Virus record (IMG/VR): IMGVR_UViG_3300048041_000073
Span: 1 to 50,714 of that record
DNA: 50,714 nucleotides
Reading direction: 5' to 3' (one strand)
From: a virus
The position numbers and the translations under genes were made by a program. Numbering within the stretch: position 1 is the first letter of the stretch; each line of letters opens with the position of its first letter. The notes below the pieces were generated by a model, which did no database searches, was not told the origin of the DNA, and saw only the letters and a list, made by a program, of their open reading frames with translations. Of the stretch, positions 139 to 50,714 are shown piece after piece.

Positions 139-2572
139 TGAGCTGAGTTGAGGTCGTAGGCGTTACCGTACTGGTTGGCAAATTAACGTTATAACTGTTT
201 GTCCCTGTCCAAGCGTTGGTACCAGATAGGCTGACACCTGAACCCGCAACAGCATAAGTTGCATCACCATAAGCCTTAGTGATGAGCTGAGTGCTTGTTG
301 TCGGAGTCTGGGTTGATGTCGGTAAGCTTGAGTTAAAGCTGTTCGTTCCTGTAAACGCGTTTGTCCCTGCAACTGTTGCAAAAGTAGCTTGTGAAACAGA
401 TGAAACAGTTGAAATACCACCCGAAACAGTGCTTAACAAAAGACCTGTAGACAAAGCACCTAGGTTAACTTCATTGGTTAGTGCGCCATTTGCTGTCGCA
501 ACTAAATACTGAGCGTTATTAGGTGCACCAGCAGAACCACTATTTGGACTCCAGAAAGCATTACCTGATGCATCCGATGTCCAAATATATCCAGCAACTG
601 CCCCTGTTGGAGCTTTGAAGCCTGAATCAATAATCATATTCCCAACAAAGGTATTGACTCCACCCCAACTTTGAGTTGCTGCTAAAGAGCCATAAGTTGC
701 ATCGCCATAAGCCTTAGTGATTAACTGTGTTGATGTAGTCGGAGTCACTGTTGATGTTGGTAAGCTTGAGTTAAAGCTGTTCGTTCCACTCCAAGCATTT
801 GTTCCCGCAATCTGCCCGAAAGTAGATTCTGAAACAGATGAAACAGTTGAAATACCGCCCGAAACAGTGCTTAACAAAAGACCTGTAGACAAAGCACCTA
901 GGTTAACTTCATTAGGAAGAGAGCCGTTCGCTGTTGCAACAAGATAAGAAGCGATTGTCGGTGCGCCACCACCACCACCACCTGCTGCCCAAGTTGCATT
1001 ACCCGAACTATCGGATGTCCACACATACCCAGCGACTGCGCCTGTTGGAGCTTGGAAACCTGAGTTAAAGACAACATTGCCTGTAAACGTATTGGTTAAA
1101 GAGCCAAAAGTATTAGAGCCATTTATTGTCGCAGCCATATTATTTACAGCATACGCAGGGATTGAGCCAGCTGTAATGTTCTCTCCAGACATATACACAC
1201 CACCGCTAAATGTGTTTATGCCAGCCCAAGTGTTATTTGCTGAAGTTGTTGCAAAAGTAGATTCGGGGATCGTTGTGAGTGTTGAAGCTCCCCCTGAGAC
1301 TGTGCTCAAAACAAGACCTGTAGACAGACCGCCTAAGTTTGTAGAGTTAGGAAGATCGGAAGCATTTTGTGTAACAACGAAATGATCATTTACAGATGGT
1401 CCACCGCCTCCGCTTCCATTTGAAGCAGCTGTTATACGTCCGAACGCATCCACTGTTAAGTTAGTATTGGTGTAACTTCCAGATGTGACAGCAGTATTAG
1501 GAAGAGCCACAGTTAAAGTACCTGATGATGTAATCGGACTTCCTGTAACCGTTAAGTTTGAAGAAGTTAAGCCTACAGAGGTTACTGTGCCCGTTCCTGG
1601 AGCTGTTCCACTTGAGGCTGCCGTGATACGGCCAAATTGGTCTACGGTTATATCGGCTAAGGTATAGCTACCTGGGGTTACAGCTGTACTTGGTAATTCA
1701 ACATCGATAGACCCTGACGAGGTAATCGGACTTCCTGTAACATTGAGTGTTGAAGAATTTAAGCCTACAGATGTTACGCCACCACCTCCACCTGATGCAG
1801 GTTGCCATGTCCACGCACCACTTGTTGCGTTTGTACAAGTCGGTATATATCCTACAGTTGCTCCTGCGGGGAACTGAGGATTTGCTTGGAAGATATTAAC
1901 ACCGCTAAAGGTTTGATTCCCTGCTAGGTAAGCAAAAGTTGATGGATTCACCGTAGAAACTGTAGAAATTCCACCACTAACCGTACTTAAAAGGAGACCT
2001 GTTGAGAATGCTCCCAAGTTAACAGAATTAGGAAGATCTGAAGCGAACTGACTTACAAGGAAATAATCATTAGGATTAGCGCCACCGCCTCCACCACCAC
2101 CTGTTGAACTGATGGTTAAATTAGTCTGTGACCCCGTATCTACAGCAGTAAGAACAACATCAGACCCTGTAATAAAGTTGATTGTATCTCTTGCTGAACC
2201 TACAAGAGAACCATCGAGGGAAACACGTACTTTTTGTACAGAAGTGTTATCTCCAACTTGTAATCCAATATCACCAGCACCATCACCATTTGTAACAAGA
2301 ATAGATGAATTAGAACCGCGAATCATTCTTGTTGCAATTGTATTACCCGCACCAGCCGCTAAAATACCATTTCCGCTAGCAGCAGCAGCAACAAGGGATA
2401 GTAATGCGCCAGTTGGTCTAACTTCAATGCTTCCGCCTGGTCCTGATGGCACTAATAGCAAACCTAAGCTAGAATTTGTAATTAAGTTAGAACTCGCTGC
2501 CAGACCATACGATGGATCTGTGGCCACTGGTATTGTTGTGATAAGTGGCGAAGTATTGGAATCAAAAGACAT
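1..2572 (-). CDS. Repeat-built tail fibre protein, N-terminal part (runs off left edge)
   Basis: Open reading frame from ATG at 2572, with an AGGAG ribosome site just upstream, reading leftward without a stop to base 1. About 857 codons are in the window. The protein is rich in Gly, Ser, Thr and Asn. It repeats phrases such as LPTSTxTPTTSTQ, LITKAYGDA, NLGALSTGLLLSTVSGG and APTGAVAGYxWTSDASGN, the pattern of trimeric beta-structured phage fibre shafts. It follows directly after the FN3 virion gene in the late operon. The frame continues exactly into the gene at the right edge (49336-50714) through the shared 138-base end. The joined protein would be 1270 residues. Receptor binding is inferred from type and position; no enzyme domain is visible. 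Confidence 0.85.
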   Translation of the reverse strand, partial: MSFDSNTSPLITTIPVATDPSYGLAASSNLITNSSLGLLLVPSGPGGSIEVRPTGALLSLVAAAASGNGILAAGAGNTIATRMIRGSNSSILVTNGDGAGDIGLQVGDNTSVQKVRVSLDGSLVGSARDTINFITGSDVVLTAVDTGSQTNLTISSTGGGGGGGANPNDYFLVSQFASDLPNSVNLGAFSTGLLLSTVSGGISTVSTVNPSTFAYLAGNQTFSGVNIFQANPQFPAGATVGYIPTCTNATSGAWTWQPASGGGGGVTSVGLNSSTLNVTGSPITSSGSIDVELPSTAVTPGSYTLADITVDQFGRITAASSGTAPGTGTVTSVGLTSSNLTVTGSPITSSGTLTVALPNTAVTSGSYTNTNLTVDAFGRITAASNGSGGGGPSVNDHFVVTQNASDLPNSTNLGGLSTGLVLSTVSGGASTLTTIPESTFATTSANNTWAGINTFSGGVYMSGENITAGSIPAYAVNNMAATINGSNTFGSLTNTFTGNVVFNSGFQAPTGAVAGYVWTSDSSGNATWAAGGGGGGAPTIASYLVATANGSLPNEVNLGALSTGLLLSTVSGGISTVSSVSESTFGQIAGTNAWSGTNSFNSSLPTSTVTPTTSTQLITKAYGDATYGSLAATQSWGGVNTFVGNMIIDSGFKAPTGAVAGYIWTSDASGNAFWSPNSGSAGAPNNAQYLVATANGALTNEVNLGALSTGLLLSTVSGGISTVSSVSQATFATVAGTNAFTGTNSFNSSLPTSTQTPTTSTQLITKAYGDATYAVAGSGVSLSGTNAWTGTNSYNVNLPTSTVTPTTSTQLITKAYGDASYDASGAAAGLLASSNTWTGTNAFNAHLPTSTATPTTS

Positions 2573-6270: not shown

Positions 6271-7188
6271 TTAACCTTGTGAACCTAGAACAGAACGGAA
6301 GTTAATGCATCGGAATGCATAACGCTCAGAACCATATACACCGATGTTCTGGTTAGCTTGATCAACGCTGAGAGTAATTTGGAGTGTTTTGCGTTGATAG
6401 TTAACAAGACCGTCTTCAAAGTCAGTAAGAATAAACCAGTTACCTTGGTTAGCCATATAATGGCTTAGAACCCAACCATCAGATAAATATTGACCATACG
6501 TAATTGGGTTAACGGCGTTAGTTGTATTTTCTGGACGATATGTAGAACCAAATAGAGCTGTAGCAATAAACTGATTCTGTATACCAACCAAACAACGTTT
6601 TGCTTCAATCTTACGAGGTAAACCAGAATAATCATAAAACTGCTGTGAAAGAGCAACTAAATCTTCTAATGAAGTTTCGTTCAACTCAGCAGGATTAATC
6701 ATATTAGAAACAGTACCATTTGAAATCGGATGACTAAACGAACACATTGGTTGTCCGTCACCGAGTACGTACTGTGGATTTGTGCTACTAAACGCATTGT
6801 CAAATAAAGCAATACCGTTATACTCGGAAAGAATATTCAAATTCTCACGAATACCTACGACACCTTTAGGGAATTCATCTTGGTACAAGTTATCGTCAAT
6901 CGCTATACTTGTTACAGTAAATCCAACGCCCCAATTTTGGATACGAGTATTTGTAACATAGGCCTGATCTCCAACTGAAGCCATTGGCATCTGTGAGCCT
7001 TCATTGAAATAACCAGCACCATTTACTGTACCCATTTCAATGTCAACTTCGGCTGCCTTTATAGATGGCATAATCTTAAATATACTTTTCCACTCATTTT
7101 GATAATAAGGATAGTATGAAGTGATACTACTAGCACCTGGGAGTAAAAGTTGTGCCCACTGTGCGGATGTTGTTACTGAGGAAGCCAT
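6271..7188 (-). CDS. Major capsid protein (HK97-type fold expected)
   Basis: 305 residues. The layout matches the short major capsid family of many podoviruses and Mu-like heads. It has an N-terminal aromatic stretch (SYYPYYQNEWKSIF), a helical segment, then DGQPMCSFSHPISNG, where the S-x-H-P element is typical. A helix (LEDLVALSQQFYDYSGLPRK) and a C-terminal strand set (NWFILTDFEDGL, YGSERYAFRCINFRSVLGSQG) follow. Forms the icosahedral shell with the putative scaffold encoded upstream. A strong AAAGGA site precedes ATG 7188. The next upstream gene is the decoration-like protein, a usual pairing. Confidence 0.88.
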   Translation of the reverse strand: MASSVTTSAQWAQLLLPGASSITSYYPYYQNEWKSIFKIMPSIKAAEVDIEMGTVNGAGYFNEGSQMPMASVGDQAYVTNTRIQNWGVGFTVTSIAIDDNLYQDEFPKGVVGIRENLNILSEYNGIALFDNAFSSTNPQYVLGDGQPMCSFSHPISNGTVSNMINPAELNETSLEDLVALSQQFYDYSGLPRKIEAKRCLVGIQNQFIATALFGSTYRPENTTNAVNPITYGQYLSDGWVLSHYMANQGNWFILTDFEDGLVNYQRKTLQITLSVDQANQNIGVYGSERYAFRCINFRSVLGSQG

Positions 7189-8066: not shown

Positions 8067-8885
8067 TTACACCATGTGTTTATAACCTGGATTACCGATA
8101 TAATTTCTATCTTGACCAGTCGTACTATTAAATCCAAAATTTTCTTTACCAGGCATTCTTGTAAGAACTTCTTTAAAACGATTCTGAATATTACGTGTTT
8201 TAGATTTGATTGCTTCTTCTTCGGCATGAAGTTCATTATCTAATTTACCTAGACCTAAACCACCACCTTCAACAATTCCAACTGAATCTCTAATTTCACC
8301 ATTATAATCTAAGAATGCTAATTCAGGTGCTTCCTCAGCACGAACCCATTCCCAACCATGGCACTCATGTCTTTTCATATTTTGTGTATCTGGCTTATCT
8401 CGAAGAGCCATACGAATCCATTTATAATAATAACCATCTTGCTTTACGCTTTCAGGAATATAAGTTTTACCAATAGAAACCGTATGCATTGCTCTTTTAT
8501 AATACTCAATACGTTCGGCATGTGACCTAAATTGTAATTCACGTGAGTTATTAATTCGTGTTCTTGGTTGGAAATCCTTAGTCTTATTTACTAATTCTTC
8601 ATTACCATATGGCATTGATGATTCGTGAATAGGATTAAAAGAATCACTTGTTGGAATATCCATATGATTAATTAATGGCACATTCATATCTTTACGAATT
8701 GTTCTTTGTAATTTAAAGGTTTCAGGTGCTTCCTCTGCTTCTTCTGAAAAATTATCTCCAAATTTATCTTTTAGTATTCTATTAACACTAGATTTACTAA
8801 TTCCAATAATTTCGGAAATTCTTCTACAACTTAAACCATCTTTACGTAATTCAAGTGCCATACGTTCTTTATCTAAATCGGCCAT
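8067..8885 (-). CDS. HTH-domain protein fused to a phage virion-operon module
   Basis: 272 residues. Residues about 5-40 form a helix-turn-helix of the resolvase/homeodomain-like type (ALELRKDGLSCRRISEIIG, then SKSSVNRILK). After a linker, residues about 120-185 resemble a module seen in head-operon proteins of podoviruses. It is aromatic, with YYKWIRMALRDKPDTQN followed by HECHGWEWVRAEEAPEL. The protein therefore may bind DNA and also belong to the virion or its assembly. It lies directly before a terminator and the capsid genes, so it could regulate them or take part in packaging. No ribosome-site anomaly. Function is not established. Confidence 0.6.
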   Translation of the reverse strand: MADLDKERMALELRKDGLSCRRISEIIGISKSSVNRILKDKFGDNFSEEAEEAPETFKLQRTIRKDMNVPLINHMDIPTSDSFNPIHESSMPYGNEELVNKTKDFQPRTRINNSRELQFRSHAERIEYYKRAMHTVSIGKTYIPESVKQDGYYYKWIRMALRDKPDTQNMKRHECHGWEWVRAEEAPELAFLDYNGEIRDSVGIVEGGGLGLGKLDNELHAEEEAIKSKTRNIQNRFKEVLTRMPGKENFGFNSTTGQDRNYIGNPGYKHMV

Positions 8886-8893
8886 AATGACAC

Positions 8894-10330
8894 CTACTTT
8901 CTGTAATAATCTCTGAAAAAGTTATATCTTTCTTCAGCTGTTTTAAGTTCTTTGCCTGTTTTTGGGTCAACCATTCCATGCATTGTCGCATATAACTTGC
9001 GAGCTGCTTCATCAACAACAGGATCAATTGAATGTGTTTGTTGATATCCTTGACGACTTACATATGTTGCCCCGTTACTTGGATATGGTTGAGGTGGATA
9101 TTGAGGGTGTGGTGGGTTTTGTGGTCCACGATTATATTGTGGCGGAGCATATTGCGGTGGTGGTGGTGCTTGATATTGTCCATGTTCATTAACAAGACGA
9201 CCATCATTATTTCTATAGTCAGTTGTTTTTATATAATTAGGATTATAATTTGGCGCATATTCTGGGCCATAATGATCAGGTGCCTCTGTTCTAAAAATAG
9301 CATTTCCATTGGCATTAGGATTGTATGACATTTCAGTCTCCTGTAACGCATATTGCGTATTTTCTGGATAATAATTTTGTTGAGGTGTTGATTTTCGTTT
9401 TCTTTTGGAAAAACGTTCACGCATTGTTGCTTCAACTTCTTCGTAATAATCAGGTGTCCCGATATACGAACTTTCTCCATTTATTTTGAGATCATTATTA
9501 ATTTCTGAACGAATTTCCCAAATTTTTTGTGCTAAATTTTCATCATAATCAGGATGATGTGGGTTACATACAGGTTGACGCTCAAGAAATGTTGAATAAT
9601 GTTCACTATTTAAATCGCGACTATCGGAATATTGTTGAAGTTTTTGAGATAATATTTCTTGATATTCATCTCTAGGATCGGGCATAGGATTCGCATACAT
9701 CTGCTCTTTCAAAGCAATGTTTTGGATATCTCGCTCTATTTCTTTTTTCTCACTAATAAACTCTTGAGAAAGATTTAATGCTTTAATTTCGTTGTCATAA
9801 TCATTGTTATGCTTGGCATTAATAAAAACATCAGTTGCTTTTTGGATATTATCTTCAATAGATCGTTTCTCAAGTTCTAATCTATATTTTTCCGCAATAA
9901 GATTGTTTTCGATTTCTTTTTGTTCGAGAGCCTCTCGCATCATCGCTTCTTTAGCAGCAAAGACTTTTTCTTGCCTTTCTTTTTCGGCTGATTGTCTTAT
10001 TGCATAAGCATTAGAATGTTGCTTTGCTTTTCGTTTGCGGCGTTGATGATCATTTGATGAACGTTGATCATCATTATGAATTTCACTTTCTATTTCATAA
10101 TTTTGTTGATTGTTATCATTAATATTATATTGTGGATTTTCAAAATTATCCTGAATCTGCGCACGTTCGTCTTGACTTTGCGCATTTACTTCATTGATTA
10201 CATCAACCAAACCTGTTTTTTGTGATAATTCCATTAAAGGATCAACATACGCGGATGTATGATTATCAGTTTTGGTATCGATAACAAAAGTAGATATATT
10301 ATCGGTCATCGGATTTACAAAATTATCCAT
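8894..10330 (-). CDS. Putative scaffolding protein (Gln/Asn-rich coiled coil)
   Basis: 478 residues. An acidic Asn/Gln-rich N-terminus leads into a basic patch (about residues 95-110, RRKRKAKQ), then a long predicted coiled coil (about 110-240) dominated by Glu, Lys, Gln and Ile. The C-terminal third is Pro/Tyr/Gln-rich and ends in a short helix (DEAARKLYATMHGMVDPKTG). Long helical, low-complexity proteins encoded just upstream of the major capsid gene are usually scaffolds, and I infer that here. No protease is visible nearby. An alternative is an internal head protein. Confidence 0.55.
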   Translation of the reverse strand: MDNFVNPMTDNISTFVIDTKTDNHTSAYVDPLMELSQKTGLVDVINEVNAQSQDERAQIQDNFENPQYNINDNNQQNYEIESEIHNDDQRSSNDHQRRKRKAKQHSNAYAIRQSAEKERQEKVFAAKEAMMREALEQKEIENNLIAEKYRLELEKRSIEDNIQKATDVFINAKHNNDYDNEIKALNLSQEFISEKKEIERDIQNIALKEQMYANPMPDPRDEYQEILSQKLQQYSDSRDLNSEHYSTFLERQPVCNPHHPDYDENLAQKIWEIRSEINNDLKINGESSYIGTPDYYEEVEATMRERFSKRKRKSTPQQNYYPENTQYALQETEMSYNPNANGNAIFRTEAPDHYGPEYAPNYNPNYIKTTDYRNNDGRLVNEHGQYQAPPPPQYAPPQYNRGPQNPPHPQYPPQPYPSNGATYVSRQGYQQTHSIDPVVDEAARKLYATMHGMVDPKTGKELKTAEERYNFFRDYYRK

Positions 10331-10341
10331 ATGGCCCTCCT

Positions 10342-10953
10342 TTATGCATCACGTAAGTCTCTTTCGAGTTCCAGTGTAGTTACAAGTGTATCGGGATTAT
10401 CATCTGCCATGATGAAACGGTCATCATGAACAGAAGCGAGCATAATACCTGTTTTTTCAGCTTTCTGACGTTCAACACCTCTAAATACTGCCCATTCACC
10501 ATAAGTAAAACGTGGACCAGCAGGGAATCTCGCTTTATCAGTAAAACATTCTTTACCCATTCGCAAAATCTTGCCAATCATGCAACGTTGCATAATATCA
10601 CGTACTTTCTGAGGTGTATTATAGAAACCGTTCGACATCTTTTCACCTGGATGCCATAACTTAATCAAAATCTGATAACCTCTTACAAAGGTTTCATCGA
10701 TTCCAACATTTTCCATAACAAGATCATGTACTTCGTTTGGTGTCCATAACCATGGATTTACCCATTCACGTCCCGAATCATCTGGCGCATATCTAACTTT
10801 TTCCATTAGATAATCAAATACCTCGTCATCGGTCATAACCCCCTTTTTCTGAGCTTCAAATAATTGAAGATACTCAGAAATCGGGAGAATTTTCCGACAA
10901 TAAGAATGCAAATTATCTCTAATAAGACGTTCTTTTTGTGGTGTTATTTTCAT
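10342..10953 (-). CDS. GroES-like co-chaperonin (phage gp31/Cpn10 type)
   Basis: 203 residues. The last about 110 residues match the 10-kDa co-chaperonin layout of tailed phages. A first strand GYQILIKLW is followed by a flexible Gly/Asn loop (GEKMSNGFYNTPQK) at the mobile-loop position. Next come IGKILRMGKECF, the phage-typical RFPAGPRFTYGEWAVF core, and a final strand pair ending DDNPDTLVTTLE. About 90 extra N-terminal residues (Trp-rich, WVNPWLWTPNEVHDLV) have no counterpart in GroES. Co-chaperonins cap the GroEL ring and aid capsid folding. The place among head genes, and a GroEL-like gene at 34481-36100, support this. Assignment is by pattern only. Confidence 0.72.
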   Translation of the reverse strand: MKITPQKERLIRDNLHSYCRKILPISEYLQLFEAQKKGVMTDDEVFDYLMEKVRYAPDDSGREWVNPWLWTPNEVHDLVMENVGIDETFVRGYQILIKLWHPGEKMSNGFYNTPQKVRDIMQRCMIGKILRMGKECFTDKARFPAGPRFTYGEWAVFRGVERQKAEKTGIMLASVHDDRFIMADDNPDTLVTTLELERDLRDA

Positions 10954-13024: not shown

Positions 13025-15661
13025 TTATTGCTCGTCAAAATTTGTATCTTGTACATCTTCCTCCTTGCTTTTTTGTTCATAATCAAGCGTGCTATCATAC
13101 GCTTTGGTTTGAGCATCTAGATCGGCTACATATTTATCGTGCTCTAATCTAGTGTCCTCATCCTGTTTGTTAGACTCATACTTAAGGGTAGAATCGTATG
13201 TTTTTGTTTGCGTATCTAATTGGTTTTTTTGTTCTTGTAATCTCAATTGTTCCATTCGCTCTGCTGATTTTAAGCGTATTTCTTCTTGTTGGAGTTGTAG
13301 CTTTAATTTCTCAAGTTCTAATTGTTCTTGTTTATATGATACTTCCTGAATCCTAATTTGATTCTCTATCTGCAATTGTTCTTTCTCATTTTGCATCTTT
13401 ATTTGCTCAATCTGCATGTCTTGTTGCATCTTTTGCATTTTTAATTCGAGTTCTTGTTTTTTAACTCGCAACTCTTCCATCATAACTTCATTTGGATCAA
13501 TAGGCTTCGGATTCTCCTCTGCTTCTTGCTGTTGTTGTTGTTGAACGGCCTCAGCGGCCAATACAGAAATTTGATTTTGAATATCAGGTGGCAAATCAGA
13601 TGTATCTTCAGGTAGAGTTTTGCCCATAGATGCTTGGATATCTGCCATGTATTGATTGGCTTTATGATCATTTACATGCGATTGAAGAACATTTATAGCT
13701 TCAGAGTTATCAGCTGTTTCATCATCCGTTAACTTTTGAATAAAATCATTATGACCAACAATATGAGATGCATTATCTTGCGTTGCATATACTTGTATCG
13801 CTTCACCACGTAATACACGGGCATTTTCACTTACAAAATCTAATTGTGGTGGTGGAGGTGGATCTTTAGGCTCATCTACGAGCATCTTCTCAAAATCTTT
13901 AATATTTAATGTCTTGAGAATGAATTTATTAACTTCACGCATATTATATTGATCAGGAGCTTGGGTTGCTAATGATAATAATGCCTCACCAATTGCCATT
14001 TGCTTCATAGAAGATGAACAATTTGGGTCAATTGTAGGTTTTATCTGCAAATTAGGCGCGAAATCTTCACGTGTAATATGCTGTTTTGAGCCTGCTACAT
14101 TGAAAGGATAAGGTGAAAATGGTAGCCATTCTGCAAATACATTAAACAATAATTTTAATTCGTTAGAGAATGAATCATATAATCCACGCATAATTGAATC
14201 TTCAAGAATATGCGCACTACTCACAATTGCAGATACAAGTGTTGCCGTTGCATTAACTGGCATAGAATCTGGGGAAAAGTTTACCGCACCAGAAGCATCA
14301 CTCATAGCAGGGCTGATTATATCAGTTAATACTTGGAGTAAAACTTGAGAAGGAGGATTAAAGGGGACAGGCATAAATGAATCGGTAATCTTCTTATCAA
14401 ATGTAGCCACTTGACTAACGGAACCTGGATCAAGCCTAATCTGAGACTTTTCATTCTTTGCTGTCGTACTTTGAAGTAATGCAGGAGCATTAGAAAATTC
14501 ACCTGCACGAATCAATTGTTGCAACAAACCTGTTTCAGTACGCGCTAATCCTAAAATTAAATGTGCAAGTCCAAACCCTGTAGGTCCTGGGCCTGTAAAA
14601 TACTTATATTGGACTAATTTTTGAATTGGGAGATATAAAGGGTCATTTTCATTATAATTTCGCCATATTCCGACAATATTACTCGATTCTTTATCTTTAA
14701 TAACCATATAGGGTAAAAGTGTCCCTGTAGGTGTCCCATTGGCTCGCATATGTTCGAAACCTTGGACATTTAAATAACAATAACATTCATCAAAACAATG
14801 CGTTTTGTTTTTTTCATCAGCTTGCGCCGATACTCCAACGGTATTATCTATCTTCTTTTGTACAGAATTTTGATTAATATCATATTCTTGCAAAAAGACA
14901 TCTTTCCATTCACGTGTTTTAAACTTATTTCGTACATTACGTTCGGATAATGTATAACGATGTGTTACACGTTCTGCATCTAATACACTTGATGCGCCAG
15001 GATTAATAATAATTTCATCTGATCTGATATAAGCTGCTGTAGGACGATTTTTTGATACATCTAAACAAACCTTACTAAAAACTTGTCCGCATAAAACCAT
15101 CCAAAAAAGTGCTTGTTTCTTATCCTCAATATAACCAGACATAACGGAGGAAAGCATATAATTAGCAAAATCTTTCATACGAAAGGCTTGATCTTGTACT
15201 TTTTGCGTAACCTGACCAAATGTTTCACAATCGACAACACCACCAGCAGGAAATAAATTCCCATGAAGTTTTGATGTGTTAGAAATTACTAATTTTAAAA
15301 AGGTAGGACCAAAAACATCAGCTGCTGTAGTATTCGTACCACCTGAGCCTTTATTTAATCCTATTCCCATATATTCTATGGCTGTTTTTTCGATTGAAAG
15401 TGATTTTTGCCTTGCGTCATCATCAGATGCGATAGCATCAGTAAGATAACTTCCAATACGCTTTAATTCGCCTTCACTTAAACTATGTGCCAAGTTTTCA
15501 TAAAAACGTGGGTCTCTATTAGGGTTCATATAAGGATTATTTGTAATCACTGGATCACCATACATACTAGCATAGCCAGCCTGTTCATTCCCTGGAAAGG
15601 GTGTATTCTGTGAGGCATTCATTGCTTCATTATTATATGGAGATGTTTTGACCCGAAACAT
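13025..15661 (-). CDS. Portal protein with long C-terminal coiled coil
   Basis: 878 residues. The core (about 40-560) follows the large portal type of podoviruses. Typical stretches are FSKVCLDVSKNRPTAAYIR, an LILGLARTETGLLQQLIRAG stretch and the diagnostic MPVNATATLVSAI followed by a long stem helix. From about residue 690 the protein becomes a Gln/Glu-rich coiled coil (QQQQQ, KQELELKMQKMQQDMQIEQI) that resembles the portal barrel but is longer than usual. The portal forms the dodecameric vertex through which DNA enters. Its neighbour upstream is the terminase large subunit, the classic order. A small hairpin overlaps its ribosome-site region. Confidence 0.88.
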   Translation of the reverse strand: MFRVKTSPYNNEAMNASQNTPFPGNEQAGYASMYGDPVITNNPYMNPNRDPRFYENLAHSLSEGELKRIGSYLTDAIASDDDARQKSLSIEKTAIEYMGIGLNKGSGGTNTTAADVFGPTFLKLVISNTSKLHGNLFPAGGVVDCETFGQVTQKVQDQAFRMKDFANYMLSSVMSGYIEDKKQALFWMVLCGQVFSKVCLDVSKNRPTAAYIRSDEIIINPGASSVLDAERVTHRYTLSERNVRNKFKTREWKDVFLQEYDINQNSVQKKIDNTVGVSAQADEKNKTHCFDECYCYLNVQGFEHMRANGTPTGTLLPYMVIKDKESSNIVGIWRNYNENDPLYLPIQKLVQYKYFTGPGPTGFGLAHLILGLARTETGLLQQLIRAGEFSNAPALLQSTTAKNEKSQIRLDPGSVSQVATFDKKITDSFMPVPFNPPSQVLLQVLTDIISPAMSDASGAVNFSPDSMPVNATATLVSAIVSSAHILEDSIMRGLYDSFSNELKLLFNVFAEWLPFSPYPFNVAGSKQHITREDFAPNLQIKPTIDPNCSSSMKQMAIGEALLSLATQAPDQYNMREVNKFILKTLNIKDFEKMLVDEPKDPPPPPQLDFVSENARVLRGEAIQVYATQDNASHIVGHNDFIQKLTDDETADNSEAINVLQSHVNDHKANQYMADIQASMGKTLPEDTSDLPPDIQNQISVLAAEAVQQQQQQEAEENPKPIDPNEVMMEELRVKKQELELKMQKMQQDMQIEQIKMQNEKEQLQIENQIRIQEVSYKQEQLELEKLKLQLQQEEIRLKSAERMEQLRLQEQKNQLDTQTKTYDSTLKYESNKQDEDTRLEHDKYVADLDAQTKAYDSTLDYEQKSKEEDVQDTNFDEQ

Positions 15662-15747: not shown

Positions 15748-17439
15748 TTATATACTACGTGGCTCTTCATAAAGAATTTCTCTATTAGAAAAATCAATAG
15801 GGATAGCATCGGGGTTTTCACCTGGATAATGAATAATACCACGCATACTTAACCAAATAAACGCTTGTGCCATAGAATCGACTAAATCTTGTCCTTTACC
15901 TCGTGGGCATCTTAAACATGCTTCTACAAATTCATCACCATAACTATATCTACGCGTAAATTCACTTTCAGGAGCCAGAGGAATCCATACAATACCTGAT
16001 TCAATAATCATACTCGCAAACTTTGTGCGTGCTAATTTCCGTGTAGGACTGTCACCAGCACCATCTTTAAAACCATGGGTTCTTGGATTAAAGCCAATAA
16101 CATTAGTTATTCCACCTAACTTTAAATCTTGAATTAAAGGCACACCATTCATTGCTTCCTCAATTAAGATAAGCGTAGGTTTAGGACCTTGCCTTAACGG
16201 CCTATCTGGATCATCCGTATAATAATTATGAGCACAATTAACCATCATACGTCGTAAACCTGGGTTTTCTAATTTACCTGACCAAGAATTTAATAAAATA
16301 AGATTAGGATTATTATTTTCATCTGTGAATACGCCCCAATTTGTAACGGCTGAATCGCACGCTTCTTCCTTTATACTTAATGCAGTATCCCAACTTTGGA
16401 TAACATATTCACACTTTGGCATACCCCTTTGTTTCCACCATCTAAACCAATCTTCTTTAATTAAGTTACCACCAGAAGGTGTTGGGTCTTGTTGCATTTG
16501 AGCCGAGATATTAATGGCAGTTCCATAGATAGATTTTCTACGTCTAGTTTCATTTTCTCCATACATATTAGGCCAGATTAACTCGCCTTTTTCTTTTCTT
16601 GGATCACTCCAAACTTTCTTTGTTCCAGGCAATACAATTGTACGACAATGTCGTTTAGGGTCGTACTCCCAAGGAAGCATTAAATGAATAATAGAAGGGT
16701 CGTTTTTAGCCAAGAAATGGCCTGTAGCATCGAATTGATGCAGTCTTTGTTGAATAATAATTAAAGCACCACGACGAGATTCTGAGATTCTATCAATACG
16801 AATACCAACCGTAGCATCTAATACTAGATTTACATATTCACGTTGGGTAGCGTACATCACGTCATTTTGTGCATTAACATCATCCGCCATGATAAAGTTT
16901 GCGCCTTCACCCATAGAAGAACTATGGATAGATTTAATAAACTTTTCACCGCCAGCCGTATTACCGTATCGTTCCTTACGACTTAACTCACGTAGTAATT
17001 GTACCTTATGACCCCATAGTCTTTGATACCATTCCGATTGAATTAATTGTTTACACTTTAAAGCGTCACGTTCAGAAAGATCACCGCTACTCGAAATGTT
17101 TAAAAACTTAAGATGTGGCTCACGTGCCCATACCCAAGCAGGAAAGAATATATTGCATATGGTTGATTTCATGCAACGAGATGGAATGTTAATAAGAAGA
17201 GTCTCTATATATCCATGATAAGCAGCTTCAAGATGTTCTGAAATAACCTTAATGTGCCAGCCATCGACATATTGAAAACCTGGATGCACATATCTCCATG
17301 CAGCTTTGCAAAAATCATATAGACTGTTTTCAAGACTTTCTCGTAATTCTATTTCTTGAGGAGTTAAAGCATTAATATTGGCTGCAAACATCAATTGCAA
17401 CCCTTGCGTTTGTTTTAATCTTAACTTAGATACTGCCAT
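15748..17439 (-). CDS. terL: Terminase large subunit (ATPase-nuclease)
   Basis: 563 residues. It pumps DNA into the prohead and cuts it. The ATPase part shows the variant Walker A INIPSRCMKST (residues 84-94), a Walker B-like GEGANFIMADDVN and the coupling motif IIIQQRLHQFDATGHF. The nuclease part shows VIQSWDTALS, LILIEEAMNG and DLVDSMAQAF with the expected acidic residues. Length is normal for the family. ATG 17439 follows AGGAC. It opens the late arm, directly after tRNA-Gln, and is followed by the portal. A separate small terminase subunit is not clearly seen; the gene at 22030-22539 is a weak candidate. Confidence 0.95.
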   Translation of the reverse strand: MAVSKLRLKQTQGLQLMFAANINALTPQEIELRESLENSLYDFCKAAWRYVHPGFQYVDGWHIKVISEHLEAAYHGYIETLLINIPSRCMKSTICNIFFPAWVWAREPHLKFLNISSSGDLSERDALKCKQLIQSEWYQRLWGHKVQLLRELSRKERYGNTAGGEKFIKSIHSSSMGEGANFIMADDVNAQNDVMYATQREYVNLVLDATVGIRIDRISESRRGALIIIQQRLHQFDATGHFLAKNDPSIIHLMLPWEYDPKRHCRTIVLPGTKKVWSDPRKEKGELIWPNMYGENETRRRKSIYGTAINISAQMQQDPTPSGGNLIKEDWFRWWKQRGMPKCEYVIQSWDTALSIKEEACDSAVTNWGVFTDENNNPNLILLNSWSGKLENPGLRRMMVNCAHNYYTDDPDRPLRQGPKPTLILIEEAMNGVPLIQDLKLGGITNVIGFNPRTHGFKDGAGDSPTRKLARTKFASMIIESGIVWIPLAPESEFTRRYSYGDEFVEACLRCPRGKGQDLVDSMAQAFIWLSMRGIIHYPGENPDAIPIDFSNREILYEEPRSI

Positions 17440-17539: not shown

Positions 17540-18010
17540 TTATTTTCCATATGGATTCCATAGTTTATGTTTTTCACATAAAATTTGGATCGCAGATTTT
17601 GCGTCACAATGATTTTCATCCATGATTAATTGAATAAAATTCTTTAATGCTTTTTCGCTTTTATCATCAAAAATGAAACTATTTTTAATATAAGCATTTC
17701 TAGAAGTAGGACAATGAAATAATTTTACTACTTTTTTATTTTCAACATATGCCACATATTCATGCCATCTACCTTGATCATCGTGGGCATAAAACTTGAA
17801 TTTTATAGGAAATTTATAATTTTCTTCTAAATCACAATATTCACCATCATTAAATTTTACTTCTAGACTACCATCTTTATGAATAAAGAAATCACTTGCA
17901 GTCCCATCATCATATGTACATGTATGCATATCTTTTGTTTGGAATTTATCTGTATAAATAAAACCATCAGGTAAATCCATCTCACAATACACAAAATCAA
18001 AACTTGCCAT
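17540..18010 (-). CDS. Phage conserved hypothetical protein, copy B of a tandem pair
   Basis: 156 residues. Starts SFDFVYCEMDLPDGFIYTD and is plainly a duplicate of the gene just upstream (18010-18489). Shared phrases are YCEMDLPDGF, FFIHKD, CDLEENYK and a C-terminal helical region with AIQI. The N-terminal pattern (start, then Y/C-E-x-x-L-P-D, F-Q-T-K-D) belongs to a common phage family of unknown function. Its ATG overlaps the previous stop (TAATG) and is preceded by GAGGAAA. Last protein gene before tRNA-Gln. Confidence 0.75.
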   Translation of the reverse strand: MASFDFVYCEMDLPDGFIYTDKFQTKDMHTCTYDDGTASDFFIHKDGSLEVKFNDGEYCDLEENYKFPIKFKFYAHDDQGRWHEYVAYVENKKVVKLFHCPTSRNAYIKNSFIFDDKSEKALKNFIQLIMDENHCDAKSAIQILCEKHKLWNPYGK

Positions 18011-18489
18011 TAGATTTCCTCATCCCAAAACGTAAAAACTCTAGCATTCTCTGCCATAATTTGGATAGCTTCTTTGCAACTTAGACGATGATCATCCATT
18101 TTAGCCTGGATAATACGTCTTATAAAAAACATTTCATCTTTTGAAAATTTATAGGAAGTTTCATAAGAACAATCAGATGTTATACATGATACAAGTTTTA
18201 CAACTTTTTCTCCATCCGTATACGCTGAGTATTCATGAAATTCACCCGCACGATCATCTGCGTGAGCATAAAAATTAAATTTAGATGGTAATTTATAATT
18301 TTCTTCTAAATCACAATTTTCATTATGATTAAATTTTATTTCTACACTACAATCTTTATGGATAAAGAAATCACTAAGGGTACCACCATTATATGTACAT
18401 GTTTCCATATCCTTTGATTGGAATGCATGTGCGTAAACAAACCCATCAGGTAAATCCATCTCACAATATATATTGTCATACATTCCCAT
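18010..18489 (-). CDS. Phage conserved hypothetical protein, copy A of a tandem pair
   Basis: 159 residues beginning MGMYDNIYCEMDLPDGF, the hallmark start of a widespread phage family with no known function. It is paralogous to 17540-18010 along its whole length; the copies differ most in the last 50 residues. Compact beta-rich N-terminal domain, helical C-terminus. The start overlaps the end of the upstream gene by 14 bases and has GGAAA upstream, so translation is probably coupled. Confidence 0.75.
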   Translation of the reverse strand: MGMYDNIYCEMDLPDGFVYAHAFQSKDMETCTYNGGTLSDFFIHKDCSVEIKFNHNENCDLEENYKLPSKFNFYAHADDRAGEFHEYSAYTDGEKVVKLVSCITSDCSYETSYKFSKDEMFFIRRIIQAKMDDHRLSCKEAIQIMAENARVFTFWDEEI

Positions 18490-32647: not shown

Positions 32648-33763
32648 CTATTGATCTACTATTTTTATCTTGAAATAGCTCAAAACATCACGATTTGCAC
32701 CTCTAAACGTATCGGCATCTGTCATTTCATTTGCTTGGCCATTAATGACAATACCTTTACAAACAAAATGATAAGGGAAAGCAATTTCATAAACAAATCT
32801 ACCTGTATCTATTCGTTTGATAGGAAGATACTCAGGCTCAATACAGCCTCTAAAGGTTACACTTTTAGCGATTTGATCTAATATTTTATATTCCTCAGCC
32901 AATATAGAAGAATCATATTGAAATCCTTTAAAGACAGTACGAGGTACAATACGGTTTAATTCATCATTAACCGTTGATAGGGTTGATAAAACAGGCGGAT
33001 GTCTATACGTAACACTCGGTTTTGACAAAGTCTTTTCTCCTTTATTCCAAGAAATCTTCTTTTTTATCCAATGCCCCCATGTATACGTCCATTCTTTCGT
33101 CGTACGCAAGACAGAACGGCTTTTTGCATAGTGATACTTAAACTTTTGATACATCTCTTCAATTTGAACATTTGATAATCCCGCATCTATGGCTGACTTA
33201 ACCCATTTATCACTAATAGGCTTATCAATATTCAAGGCAACTGGCTTCTTAACAGATTTGGCTTTTTCCATCGTCGCATTGGCTGTTTTTTTCTTGGAAT
33301 CTGTTTTTGAAAAATTTAACGCGCTCTTGGTGACGTTTATAGATAATACATAAGTATTATAAGCAACCGAAGGTAAGTGACAAAATGTCCCAACGGCTTT
33401 GTCAAGAAAACGCCAGACATTTCCCCAGTTTATCTCGTATTTTACAGAGCTAGATTTGATGCGCATACAGGCATCTCTTTTAAAAGTTTTGGTTCTTGTA
33501 ATAAATCCTAATGCTTCTAATTTTGCCATTGATCTTGAAAAAGTACGGGCACAAAACATATTACTCATGGCATTGAGAAAATGCTTTCGTGTTATTATGA
33601 GAAATGGCTGTTCGCCCGTGAGACTTTTTAACTTTCGGAAAAAAGCCCAGACTGTTTGTCCAATTTGGGTGTGTAATTTTTCATCTATTTTTTGTTGTTT
33701 ATAAGATAGTCTATAATAAATATTAAATATTTTATAATCAGACATGGATTCCATGTTTAGCAT
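32648..33763 (-). CDS. Replication-initiator-like protein with winged helix and DnaT-like domain
   Basis: 371 residues. The first about 120 residues look like a winged helix-turn-helix (FLIITRKHFLNAMSNMFCAR, then TFSRSMAKLEALGFITRT). Residues about 195-250 resemble the DnaT-type single-strand binding domain seen in phage primosome proteins: AIDAGLSNVQIEEMYQKFKY followed by W-x-x-x-W-x-x-W (EWTYTWGHWIKKK). The C-terminal third is unknown. A GAGGAAA site precedes the first of three near ATGs. It probably loads host replication enzymes at an origin; origin location not proven. Confidence 0.6.
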   Translation of the reverse strand: MLNMESMSDYKIFNIYYRLSYKQQKIDEKLHTQIGQTVWAFFRKLKSLTGEQPFLIITRKHFLNAMSNMFCARTFSRSMAKLEALGFITRTKTFKRDACMRIKSSSVKYEINWGNVWRFLDKAVGTFCHLPSVAYNTYVLSINVTKSALNFSKTDSKKKTANATMEKAKSVKKPVALNIDKPISDKWVKSAIDAGLSNVQIEEMYQKFKYHYAKSRSVLRTTKEWTYTWGHWIKKKISWNKGEKTLSKPSVTYRHPPVLSTLSTVNDELNRIVPRTVFKGFQYDSSILAEEYKILDQIAKSVTFRGCIEPEYLPIKRIDTGRFVYEIAFPYHFVCKGIVINGQANEMTDADTFRGANRDVLSYFKIKIVDQ

Positions 33764-34173: not shown

Positions 34174-34458
34174 GTGGCAGAAAAAAGAATTGTGACAGAA
34201 AAAAAAATCAAGATGCGTAAGGAATTGATCACAACACCTTATATCGTTCGGAATAATGTTAATCGAATAAATTTCGAGAATCTTTTAAAGAAACATGATA
34301 TAGAATCGTATATAAATAATGATATACAAGATATAAGTAAAATGTTCATGAAATTTACACATGTTCCTTCTAAAAAAAACGTTAAATTCTCATGTAATCA
34401 AAGTACTTCATATGAGTATATCTTAAATAGACTCAAATTATTTATAGAAAACATATAA
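34174..34458 (+). CDS. Small basic protein before the chaperonin gene
   Basis: 94 residues from GTG 34174, with AAAGG nine bases upstream. Lys/Asn/Ile-rich (EKKIKMRKELITTPYIVRNN). No GroES features, so not the partner of the next gene. Gap of 22 bases to the GroEL-like gene suggests co-transcription. Unknown function. Confidence 0.5.
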   Translation: MAEKRIVTEKKIKMRKELITTPYIVRNNVNRINFENLLKKHDIESYINNDIQDISKMFMKFTHVPSKKNVKFSCNQSTSYEYILNRLKLFIENI

Positions 34459-34480: not shown

Positions 34481-36100
<1,620 letters not shown>

Positions 36101-49335: not shown

Positions 49336-50714
49336 TTAGTTAGCGTATGTGAAAAATGAGGTATTCCATTTCAAGGTGACACCTGTTTTTCCTGTTACAA
49401 CAACCTGCATATATGTGCCTGTTCCATCGATTTGGCAGGTCACATAAGGTGTTGCTTGATTGGGTCGGTTATAGACAAGGAAAGGGTCGGAAACTAAAGT
49501 TAGTGTTCCTCCCGAATTCACAGCGGTAAACACATACTTGACGCTAAATGCAGTGGAATAATCTGGAGATGCACAGTTAATAATACCTTCAAGCGTTACG
49601 ATTGAATTTGTGGTTACTGTGAGAGATACCAATGGGGTCGGTGTTGCATCTGTTGTTTGAACATACTCAACACCCACATCATTGAGGGCCTCCAAAGGAA
49701 TTGATGCTGTGGCAATGTTTGCGCCTGACATTGTTGGCGCATCATTAAACGTATTGGGCGCAGTCCAAGTGTTTGTACTACTCAAGAGAGCTGTTGCTGA
49801 ACCAGACGCATCATAACTTGCATCACCGTATGCTTTAGTGATGAGCTGAGTACTTGTTGTTGGAGTTAGAGTACTGGTTGGCAAGTTAGTATTGTAACTG
49901 TTTGTCCCCGTCCAAGCGTTGGTACCAGATAGGCTGACACCTGAACCCGCAGCAGCATAACTCGCATCACCATAAGCTTTAGTGATGAGCTGAGTACTTG
50001 TTGTCGGAGTCTGGGTAGAGGTCGGTAAGCTTGAGTTAAAGCTGTTCGTTCCTGTAAATGCGTTTGTCCCTGCAACTGTTGCAAAAGTAGCTTGCGAAAC
50101 AGATGAAACAGTTGAAATACCACCCGAAACAGTGCTTAACAAAAGACCTGTAGACAAAGCACCTAGGTTAACTTCATTGGTTAATGCGCCATTTGCTGTC
50201 GCAACTAAATACTGAGCGTTATTAGGTGCACCACCAGAACCACTATTTGGACTCCAGAAAGCATTACCTGATGCATCCGATGTCCAAATATATCCAGCAA
50301 CCGCCCCTGTTGGAGCTTGGAAACCTGAATCGATGATCATATTCCCAACAAAAGTATTGACCCCACCCCAGCTTTGAGTTGCTGCTAAAGAGCCATAAGT
50401 TGCATCACCATAAGCCTTAGTGATTAACTGTGTTGAAGTCGTGGGAGTTAGAGTACTGGTCGGTAAGTTAGTATTATAGCTGTTTGTCCCTGTCCAAGCG
50501 TTTGTTCCTGACAAGCTCACACCTGAACCCGCAGCAGCGTAACTCGCGTCACCATAAGCTTTAGTGATGAGCTGAGTTGAGGTCGTCGGAGTTGCCGTAG
50601 ACGTTGGAAGATGCGCGTTAAATGCATTAGTTCCTGTCCATGTATTACTGGAAGCCAAAAGTCCAGCAGCTGCTCCAGACGCATCATAACTTGCATCGCC
50701 ATACGCCTTAGTGA
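49336..50714 (-). CDS. Repeat-built tail fibre protein, C-terminal part (runs off right edge)
   Basis: Open from the right edge to the stop at 49336, 459 codons in the window. Codon 50658 is an internal Leu, not a start. Repeats are the same as in 1-2572 (LPTSTxTPTTSTQ, QSWGGVNTFVGN, WTSDASGNAFWSPNSG). After about residue 330 of this part the shaft ends. A distinct end domain follows (IATASIPLEALNDV through IDGTGTYMQVVVTGKTG to FFTYAN), shared with the 403-residue fibre. Joined in frame to the left-edge gene it gives 1270 residues. Confidence 0.88.
   Translation of the reverse strand, partial: TKAYGDASYDASGAAAGLLASSNTWTGTNAFNAHLPTSTATPTTSTQLITKAYGDASYAAAGSGVSLSGTNAWTGTNSYNTNLPTSTLTPTTSTQLITKAYGDATYGSLAATQSWGGVNTFVGNMIIDSGFQAPTGAVAGYIWTSDASGNAFWSPNSGSGGAPNNAQYLVATANGALTNEVNLGALSTGLLLSTVSGGISTVSSVSQATFATVAGTNAFTGTNSFNSSLPTSTQTPTTSTQLITKAYGDASYAAAGSGVSLSGTNAWTGTNSYNTNLPTSTLTPTTSTQLITKAYGDASYDASGSATALLSSTNTWTAPNTFNDAPTMSGANIATASIPLEALNDVGVEYVQTTDATPTPLVSLTVTTNSIVTLEGIINCASPDYSTAFSVKYVFTAVNSGGTLTLVSDPFLVYNRPNQATPYVTCQIDGTGTYMQVVVTGKTGVTLKWNTSFFTYAN
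50577..50714. repeat. Terminal overlap, right copy (matches 1-138)
   Basis: Direct repeat of the left end with C at 50587 and C at 50704 instead of T and A. Joining here yields a 50576-bp circle. Confidence 0.9.

What the first reader, a model, noticed from the sequence alone, without database searches (positions are those of the whole stretch)
10342..10953. Phage-encoded GroES-like protein partnered with a distant GroEL-like chaperonin
The C-terminal half of this head-operon protein has the phage co-chaperonin layout, including a mobile-loop-like segment and the RFPAGP-x-x-x-x-G-E-W core. A full GroEL-like gene lies at 34481-36100. The pair is split: the cap is in the late arm beside the putative scaffold and capsid genes, the ring in its own unit. 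The GroEL apical domain is unusually diverged and the cap has 90 extra N-terminal residues, so they may be co-adapted to each other and to the capsid.
Basis: partly seen in the sequence, partly recalled or inferred. Interest (0 to 1): 0.75.

Follow-up and report, generated by a model that had tools for sequence, protein, structure and literature searches.

The report
Phage-owned chaperonin cap and ring
This virus of bacteria carries both halves of a protein-folding chamber, a lid gene among its capsid genes and a barrel gene elsewhere, and in it and its four sufficiently complete relatives the surfaces where lid and barrel should meet have changed far more than the rest, as if the pair had been refitted to each other and away from the host's.

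Summary
The gene at 10342-10953 (minus strand) encodes a Cpn10/GroES-type cap; 34481-36100 (+) encodes a group I chaperonin with intact ATPase residues. The cap's slot (portal, cap, scaffold-like gene, two genes, capsid) is shared by many published phages, so a late-arm cap is ordinary. None of 12 such complete genomes carries GroEL. The window belongs to a terminase/capsid clade in which all five records of 47 kb or more carry both genes; their GroELs form one clade (99/98). Only here have both contact surfaces diverged: cap loop-core identity is 0.18 with barrel 0.43, against 0.49 and 0.30 in the 12 phages without GroEL (0 of 787 control quintets as low); GroEL helices H/I are 16% identical with equatorial domains 47% (matched pairs: 44%). 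A close relative's cap is under purifying selection (dN/dS about 0.08). Best reading: a phage-owned, host-independent cap-ring pair with a rewired interface, probably serving head-protein folding. Binding, insulation from host GroE and the substrate are inferred. Phage caps, rings and adjacent pairs are known; new is the split pair with paired interface divergence.

The parts
10342..10953 (-). GroES/Cpn10-like co-chaperonin (cap), 203 aa
   Evidence: tblastn to phage GroES; non-clade family profile 9.4e-18, only hit in the window; AlphaFold2 model matches GroES in the PDB; conserved head-operon slot
10381..10680 (-). GroES-fold domain, residues 92-191
   Evidence: alignment with phage GroES and E. 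coli GroES
10606..10653 (-). mobile loop, residues 101-116 (HPGEKMSNGFYNTPQK); FYN (10618-10626) stands where E. coli GroES has IVL
   Evidence: alignment; coordinates
10714..10767 (-). clade-specific N-terminal helix motif EWVNPWLWTPNEVHDLVM, residues 63-80
   Evidence: shared by all five clade caps, absent from caps of phages without GroEL
10492..10530 (-). RFPAGP-x4-GEW core, residues 142-154
   Evidence: conserved in the phage GroES family
34481..36100 (+). GroEL/Cpn60-like chaperonin (ring), 539 aa
   Evidence: Pfam PF00118 1.1e-50, phrog_5725 4e-124; PDB GroEL matches to 1e-102
35048..35629 (+). GroEL apical domain, residues 190-383, strongly diverged; helix H about 35165-35203, helix I about 35240-35278
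   Evidence: 23% identity to E. coli against 47% equatorial; helices H/I 16% identical within the clade; coordinates
34733..34756 (+). ATPase motif GDGTTTAT of the ring
6271..7188 (-). major capsid protein; likely substrate of the pair (inferred)
   Evidence: tblastn to annotated major capsid proteins
8894..10330 (-). scaffold-like gene directly after the cap
   Evidence: position and homologues in the clade; function inferred from position
13025..15661 (-). portal protein, upstream end of the head module
   Evidence: phrog_1216 1.3e-17
15748..17439 (-). terminase large subunit, used to find the clade
   Evidence: phrog_38 1e-61

Best explanation
The two genes make a phage-owned group I chaperonin: a GroEL-like ring and a GroES-like cap whose mobile loop fits the phage ring rather than the host's. 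The cap gene is an ancestral part of this virus group's head operon and in relatives presumably works with host GroEL, as T4 gp31 does. An ancestor of the window's clade gained a GroEL at a second site. The cap loop and the ring's loop-binding groove (apical helices H and I) then both diverged, while cap barrel, ATPase and ring core stayed constrained. The likely role is folding the capsid protein, or another head protein, independently of host GroES/GroEL. Shown: gene identities, conserved slots, co-occurrence, and interface-specific divergence on both sides. Inferred: that the two proteins bind each other, that they ignore host partners, the head-protein substrate, and co-expression.
For: Cap fold and family. 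Ring with intact ATPase residues. Both genes in 5 of 5 clade records of 47 kb or more (window); no second cap found in the window or in the stretches scanned of the four relatives. No GroEL in 12 of 12 published complete genomes with the same cap in the head module, nor in 33 further, mostly partial, contigs. Clade GroELs form one group (99/98). GroES and GroEL trees agree on (window, G038) and (G035, G037). Loop core identity 0.180 with barrel 0.431 in the clade against 0.485 and 0.298 in the 12 controls, which were found through capsid similarity and not through a loop pattern; 0 of 787 control quintets as low. GroEL H/I helices 16% and apical 27% with equatorial 47% in the clade; other GroEL pairs of the same equatorial range have 44% and 49%. 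Published: the GroES IVL tripeptide contacts L234, L237 and V264 of helices H and I, and loop plus apical domain set partner specificity (PMC3514286).
Against: No binding, ATPase or folding data. Divergence on both sides could also arise if the two proteins no longer meet. Phage chaperonins EL, OBP and AR9 work without a co-chaperonin and EL does not bind E. coli GroES (PMC7185714, PMC9598537); the clade GroELs lack the R197-E386 ion pair, as EL and OBP do. The gain of GroEL is a single event, so the association counts once. The clade GroELs are long branches. The cap and ring genes lie on opposite strands in separate units.
Confidence: 0.6

Rival explanations
1. The two genes act separately: the ring is a co-chaperonin-free phage chaperonin of the EL/OBP/AR9 type, and the cap works with host GroEL like T4 gp31.
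For: Known phage chaperonins need no cap (PMC9598537); the R197-E386 pair is lost as in EL and OBP; genes unlinked; the same cap occurs alone in 12 complete phages.
Against: A cap serving host GroEL should keep the T-x-G-G-[IVL] type loop, as 11 of the 12 controls roughly do; the clade loops do not. The clade rings are not of the EL sequence type: equatorial identity to E. coli is 44-57%, against 25% for an EL-like ring.
Confidence: 0.2
2. The cap has left chaperonin work in this clade and is now a head-assembly or structural protein that kept the GroES fold; its loop drifted for that reason, and the ring diverged on its own account.
For: Position beside scaffold and capsid genes; clade-specific helical N-terminal extension; loop divergence.
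Against: The parallel loss of conservation in exactly the ring surface that would contact the loop, the shared inheritance of both genes and the loop being kept under some constraint between close relatives are not predicted.
Confidence: 0.12
3. Both genes are passively carried and relaxed: fast drift, no function as a pair.
For: Long GroEL branches and low apical identity.
Against: All catalytic ATPase residues kept in five rings; both genes intact in all five records of 47 kb or more; dN/dS about 0.08 in the cap.
Confidence: 0.05

Closest known systems
Head-operon phage co-chaperonin GroES of HTVC023P-type pelagiphages, DSL-LC04, Roseobacter phage CRP-901 and others (phrog_3188; a core gene of HTVC023P-type phages, PMC9599517)
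   Same: Homologous cap in the same slot: portal, cap, scaffold-like gene, further genes, capsid
   Different: None of the 12 examined has a GroEL; their mobile loop is conserved; they lack the clade's N-terminal helix motif
T4 gp31 and RB49 CocO
   Same: Phage caps with the GroES fold; gp31 serves capsid folding with host GroEL (established knowledge; PMC6318259, PMC9598537)
   Different: No phage ring in those systems; fold match of the window cap is weaker to gp31 than to bacterial GroES
Phage chaperonins EL gp146, OBP gp246 and AR9 gp228
   Same: Phage-encoded GroEL-like rings with altered apical domains; EL and OBP also lack the R197-E386 pair
   Different: Described as working without a co-chaperonin; an EL-like ring is far more diverged in its equatorial domain; the window clade has a cap
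Phages with an adjacent or near-adjacent GroES-GroEL pair: Flavobacterium immuto and elemo, Cellulophaga Calle
   Same: Both cap and ring encoded by the phage
   Different: Their cap is next to the ring; elemo also has a second cpn10 in its structural module. In the window the only cap is the head-operon one

Membership tests
GroES/Cpn10 co-chaperonin | Sequence membership in Cpn10 (PF00166) | tested here: inconclusive
   P0001 alone no hit; 36 of 39 alignment members hit; a profile of non-clade phage caps finds it at 9.4e-18
GroES/Cpn10 co-chaperonin | GroES beta-barrel fold | tested here: met
   AlphaFold2 model, pLDDT 81.9; Foldseek matches 1-33 are all GroES/Cpn10-type chains, probability 1.00 for the best
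GroES/Cpn10 co-chaperonin | Mobile loop with G-G-[IVL]-x-[L] hydrophobic tripeptide | tested here: inconclusive
   A loop of the right length and place is present, but with N-G-F-Y-N
GroES/Cpn10 co-chaperonin | Heptamer that caps a chaperonin ring | not testable with these tools
   needs biochemistry or complex modelling
Group I chaperonin GroEL/Cpn60 | Full-length Cpn60 with conserved ATPase residues D52, D87, D398 | tested here: met
Group I chaperonin GroEL/Cpn60 | Conserved apical cap/substrate contacts (Y199, Y203, F204, L234, L237, L259, V263, V264) | tested here: not met
   window has M, I, F, A, C, E, I, T at these places; the last few are alignment-dependent
Group I chaperonin GroEL/Cpn60 | Double ring | not testable with these tools
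   inter-ring residues differ from E. coli, which does not settle it
Head-operon phage GroES family (phrog_3188) | Slot between portal and capsid, before the scaffold-like gene | tested here: met
EL/OBP/AR9 co-chaperonin-free chaperonins | Ring acts without a phage cap | tested here: inconclusive
   a cap gene is present in all five clade phages, but whether the ring uses it was not tested

The most novel reading that the evidence does not exclude
A phage clade has evolved an orthogonal chaperonin pair: loop and groove rewritten on both sides and differing from phage to phage, insulated from host GroES/GroEL and dedicated to head proteins, with cap expression tied to the capsid operon.
Probability: 0.45. 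Interest if true: 0.75.

Novelty: new variant of a known kind. Interest (0 to 1): 0.58.

Why it matters
Known phage chaperonins (EL, OBP, AR9) appear to work without a cap, and the EL authors left open whether a distant cap exists (PMC7185714). Here the same cap gene sits at the same place in phages with and without their own ring, and its loop loses conservation only where a ring is present. That is a natural experiment on how chaperonin pairs set their specificity, and it offers several candidate cap-ring pairs that may be orthogonal to bacterial GroE.

Tried and rejected
Second cap near GroEL: the 94-aa ORF 34174-34458 just upstream is not GroES-like, and three cap profiles find no other cap in the window. 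Single-sequence searches with cap or ring found only a duplicate contig, or nothing; alignment queries worked. The first loop-conservation test used contigs partly selected by a loop pattern, so it was replaced by 12 complete phages found through capsid similarity. Direct PDB sequence search with P0001: no GroES hit. Host inference from GroEL: no cellular GroEL of the 249 Pseudomonadota-type genomes sampled exceeds 38% identity, so no host is proposed. The Acinetobacter 'phage' MD-2021a GroEL lies among bacterial housekeeping genes and was ignored. A residue-by-residue loop/groove covariation test was not made: five sequences are too few.

Full report
The cap. The ORF lies on the minus strand, 10342-10953, 12 nt after the preceding head-operon gene and with a ribosome-binding site. 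Alone it scores in neither Pfam nor PHROGs and a direct PDB sequence search gives no GroES. Phage GroES proteins are found by tblastn, and these hit phrog_3188, co-chaperonin GroES. A profile made only from caps outside the window's clade finds exactly one ORF in the window, this one, at 9.4e-18. An AlphaFold2 model from a 39-sequence alignment has mean pLDDT 81.9, and its top 33 Foldseek matches in the PDB are all GroES/Cpn10-type chains.

The slot. In DSL-LC04, HTVC027P, HTVC023P, 023Pt_psg01, CRP-901, QDWS535, Caulobacter GB2A and four Manatee Spring phages the cap lies between portal and capsid and is followed by a scaffold-sized gene; MinM2 shows terminase, a portal-family gene, cap and the next genes before its linear record ends. 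In most, the capsid gene is the fourth gene after the cap; ct7L0027 has extra small genes between. The GB2A gene is annotated only as hypothetical. HTVC023P-type phages have GroES among 13 core genes (PMC9599517). A cap in the late arm is thus ordinary.

The ring. P0002 is a full-length Cpn60 protein with D52, D87, D398 and the GGG turn conserved. It stands on the plus strand with its own ribosome-binding site.

Co-occurrence. Terminase searches found relatives with 40-55% identical terminases. Those of 47 kb or more, G035, G037, G038 and G040, all carry a GroEL and a head-operon cap. Gene order of the head operon is shared, and GroEL stands near homologues of the window's 32648-33763 or 36408-38168 genes in G037, G038 and G040, so its site looks conserved. 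G036 (19.5 kb), G039 (22 kb) and G041 (19 kb) are short contigs in which neither gene was found; the last two have only 31-34% identical terminases. The 12 published cap-bearing complete genomes have no GroEL, nor do 33 mostly fragmentary contigs. In the capsid tree the GroEL-bearing phages are one clade, 100/100; this is one gain, not several.

Divergence of the two faces. In a tree with cellular and other phage GroELs the clade's rings group at 99/98, on long branches. Apical identity to E. coli is 22-32% with 44-57% in the equatorial domain; the six other phage GroELs of that call have 48-62% apical and the cellular ones 57-69%. More diverged phage rings (elemo, Calle, EL-like, PBS1) also have low apical identity, but their equatorial domains are diverged almost as much. 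Within the clade helices H and I are 16% identical with equatorial domains 47%; other pairs of the same equatorial range have 44%. On the cap side the loop core is 18% identical with a 43% barrel in the clade, and 48.5% with a 30% barrel in the 12 controls; no control quintet is as low (0 of 787). The quintets overlap and share ancestry, so this is a descriptive comparison, not a p-value. The IVL position reads FYN, WVE, LIR, LLV and VYM in the window, G038, G037, G035 and G040. IVL is known to contact L234, L237 and V264 (PMC3514286). Alignment of so short a loop is uncertain by a residue or two.

Function retained. G037 and the fragment L170 are close enough for dN/dS: 0.117/1.47 overall, 0.066/1.74 in barrel and C terminus, 0.17/0.76 in 16 loop codons. 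Synonymous sites are near saturation, so these are rough, but the cap is under purifying selection.

Mechanism. I infer a phage cap-ring pair fitted to each other. The main rival is a cap-free ring of the EL kind plus a cap for host GroEL; it does not predict a rewired cap loop. A cap that has left chaperonin work altogether would predict it, but not the parallel change in the ring's groove. None of these is excluded without biochemistry.

Novelty. Phage caps, phage rings and phages with adjacent pairs (immuto, elemo, Calle) are known. I found no description of an unlinked pair in which an ancestral head-operon cap loses its conserved loop where a ring was gained, but the most relevant survey (Marine et al. 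2017, ISME J) is not held, so priority is uncertain.

Noticed in passing
L163 14315-14857 and 21563-21814 (Flavobacterium phage elemoA): A published phage carries two caps: a GroES next to its GroEL and a separate 180-aa cpn10 in the structural module.
   Followed up: partly
window 8067-8885 (-): Head-operon gene between the scaffold-like gene and the gene before the capsid has an N-terminal helix-turn-helix (HTH_23, 2.6e-6); matches to the clade relatives begin only at residue 80 or later.
   Followed up: no
window 17540-18010 and 18010-18489 (-): Tandem pair of similar genes, about 84% identical DNA over 209 bases.
   Followed up: no
window 253-1063 and 49956-50508: Similar sequences (about 80-93%) near both ends of the contig, probably repeated tail-fibre segments.
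   Followed up: no
L088 12398-15675: A terminase relative has a ParA-like protein, a HigBA-like pair and a resolvase beside terL, suggesting a plasmid-like or mobile stretch (by eye).
   Followed up: no
L157 3531-3872 (Alcaligenes phage QDWS535): One phage cap without a GroEL in its genome has an aberrant, long mobile loop.
   Followed up: no
L162 5640-7208 (ctf1B273): A 43-kb phage genome has a GroEL between terminase and portal; no cap was found in the 27 kb searched.
   Followed up: partly
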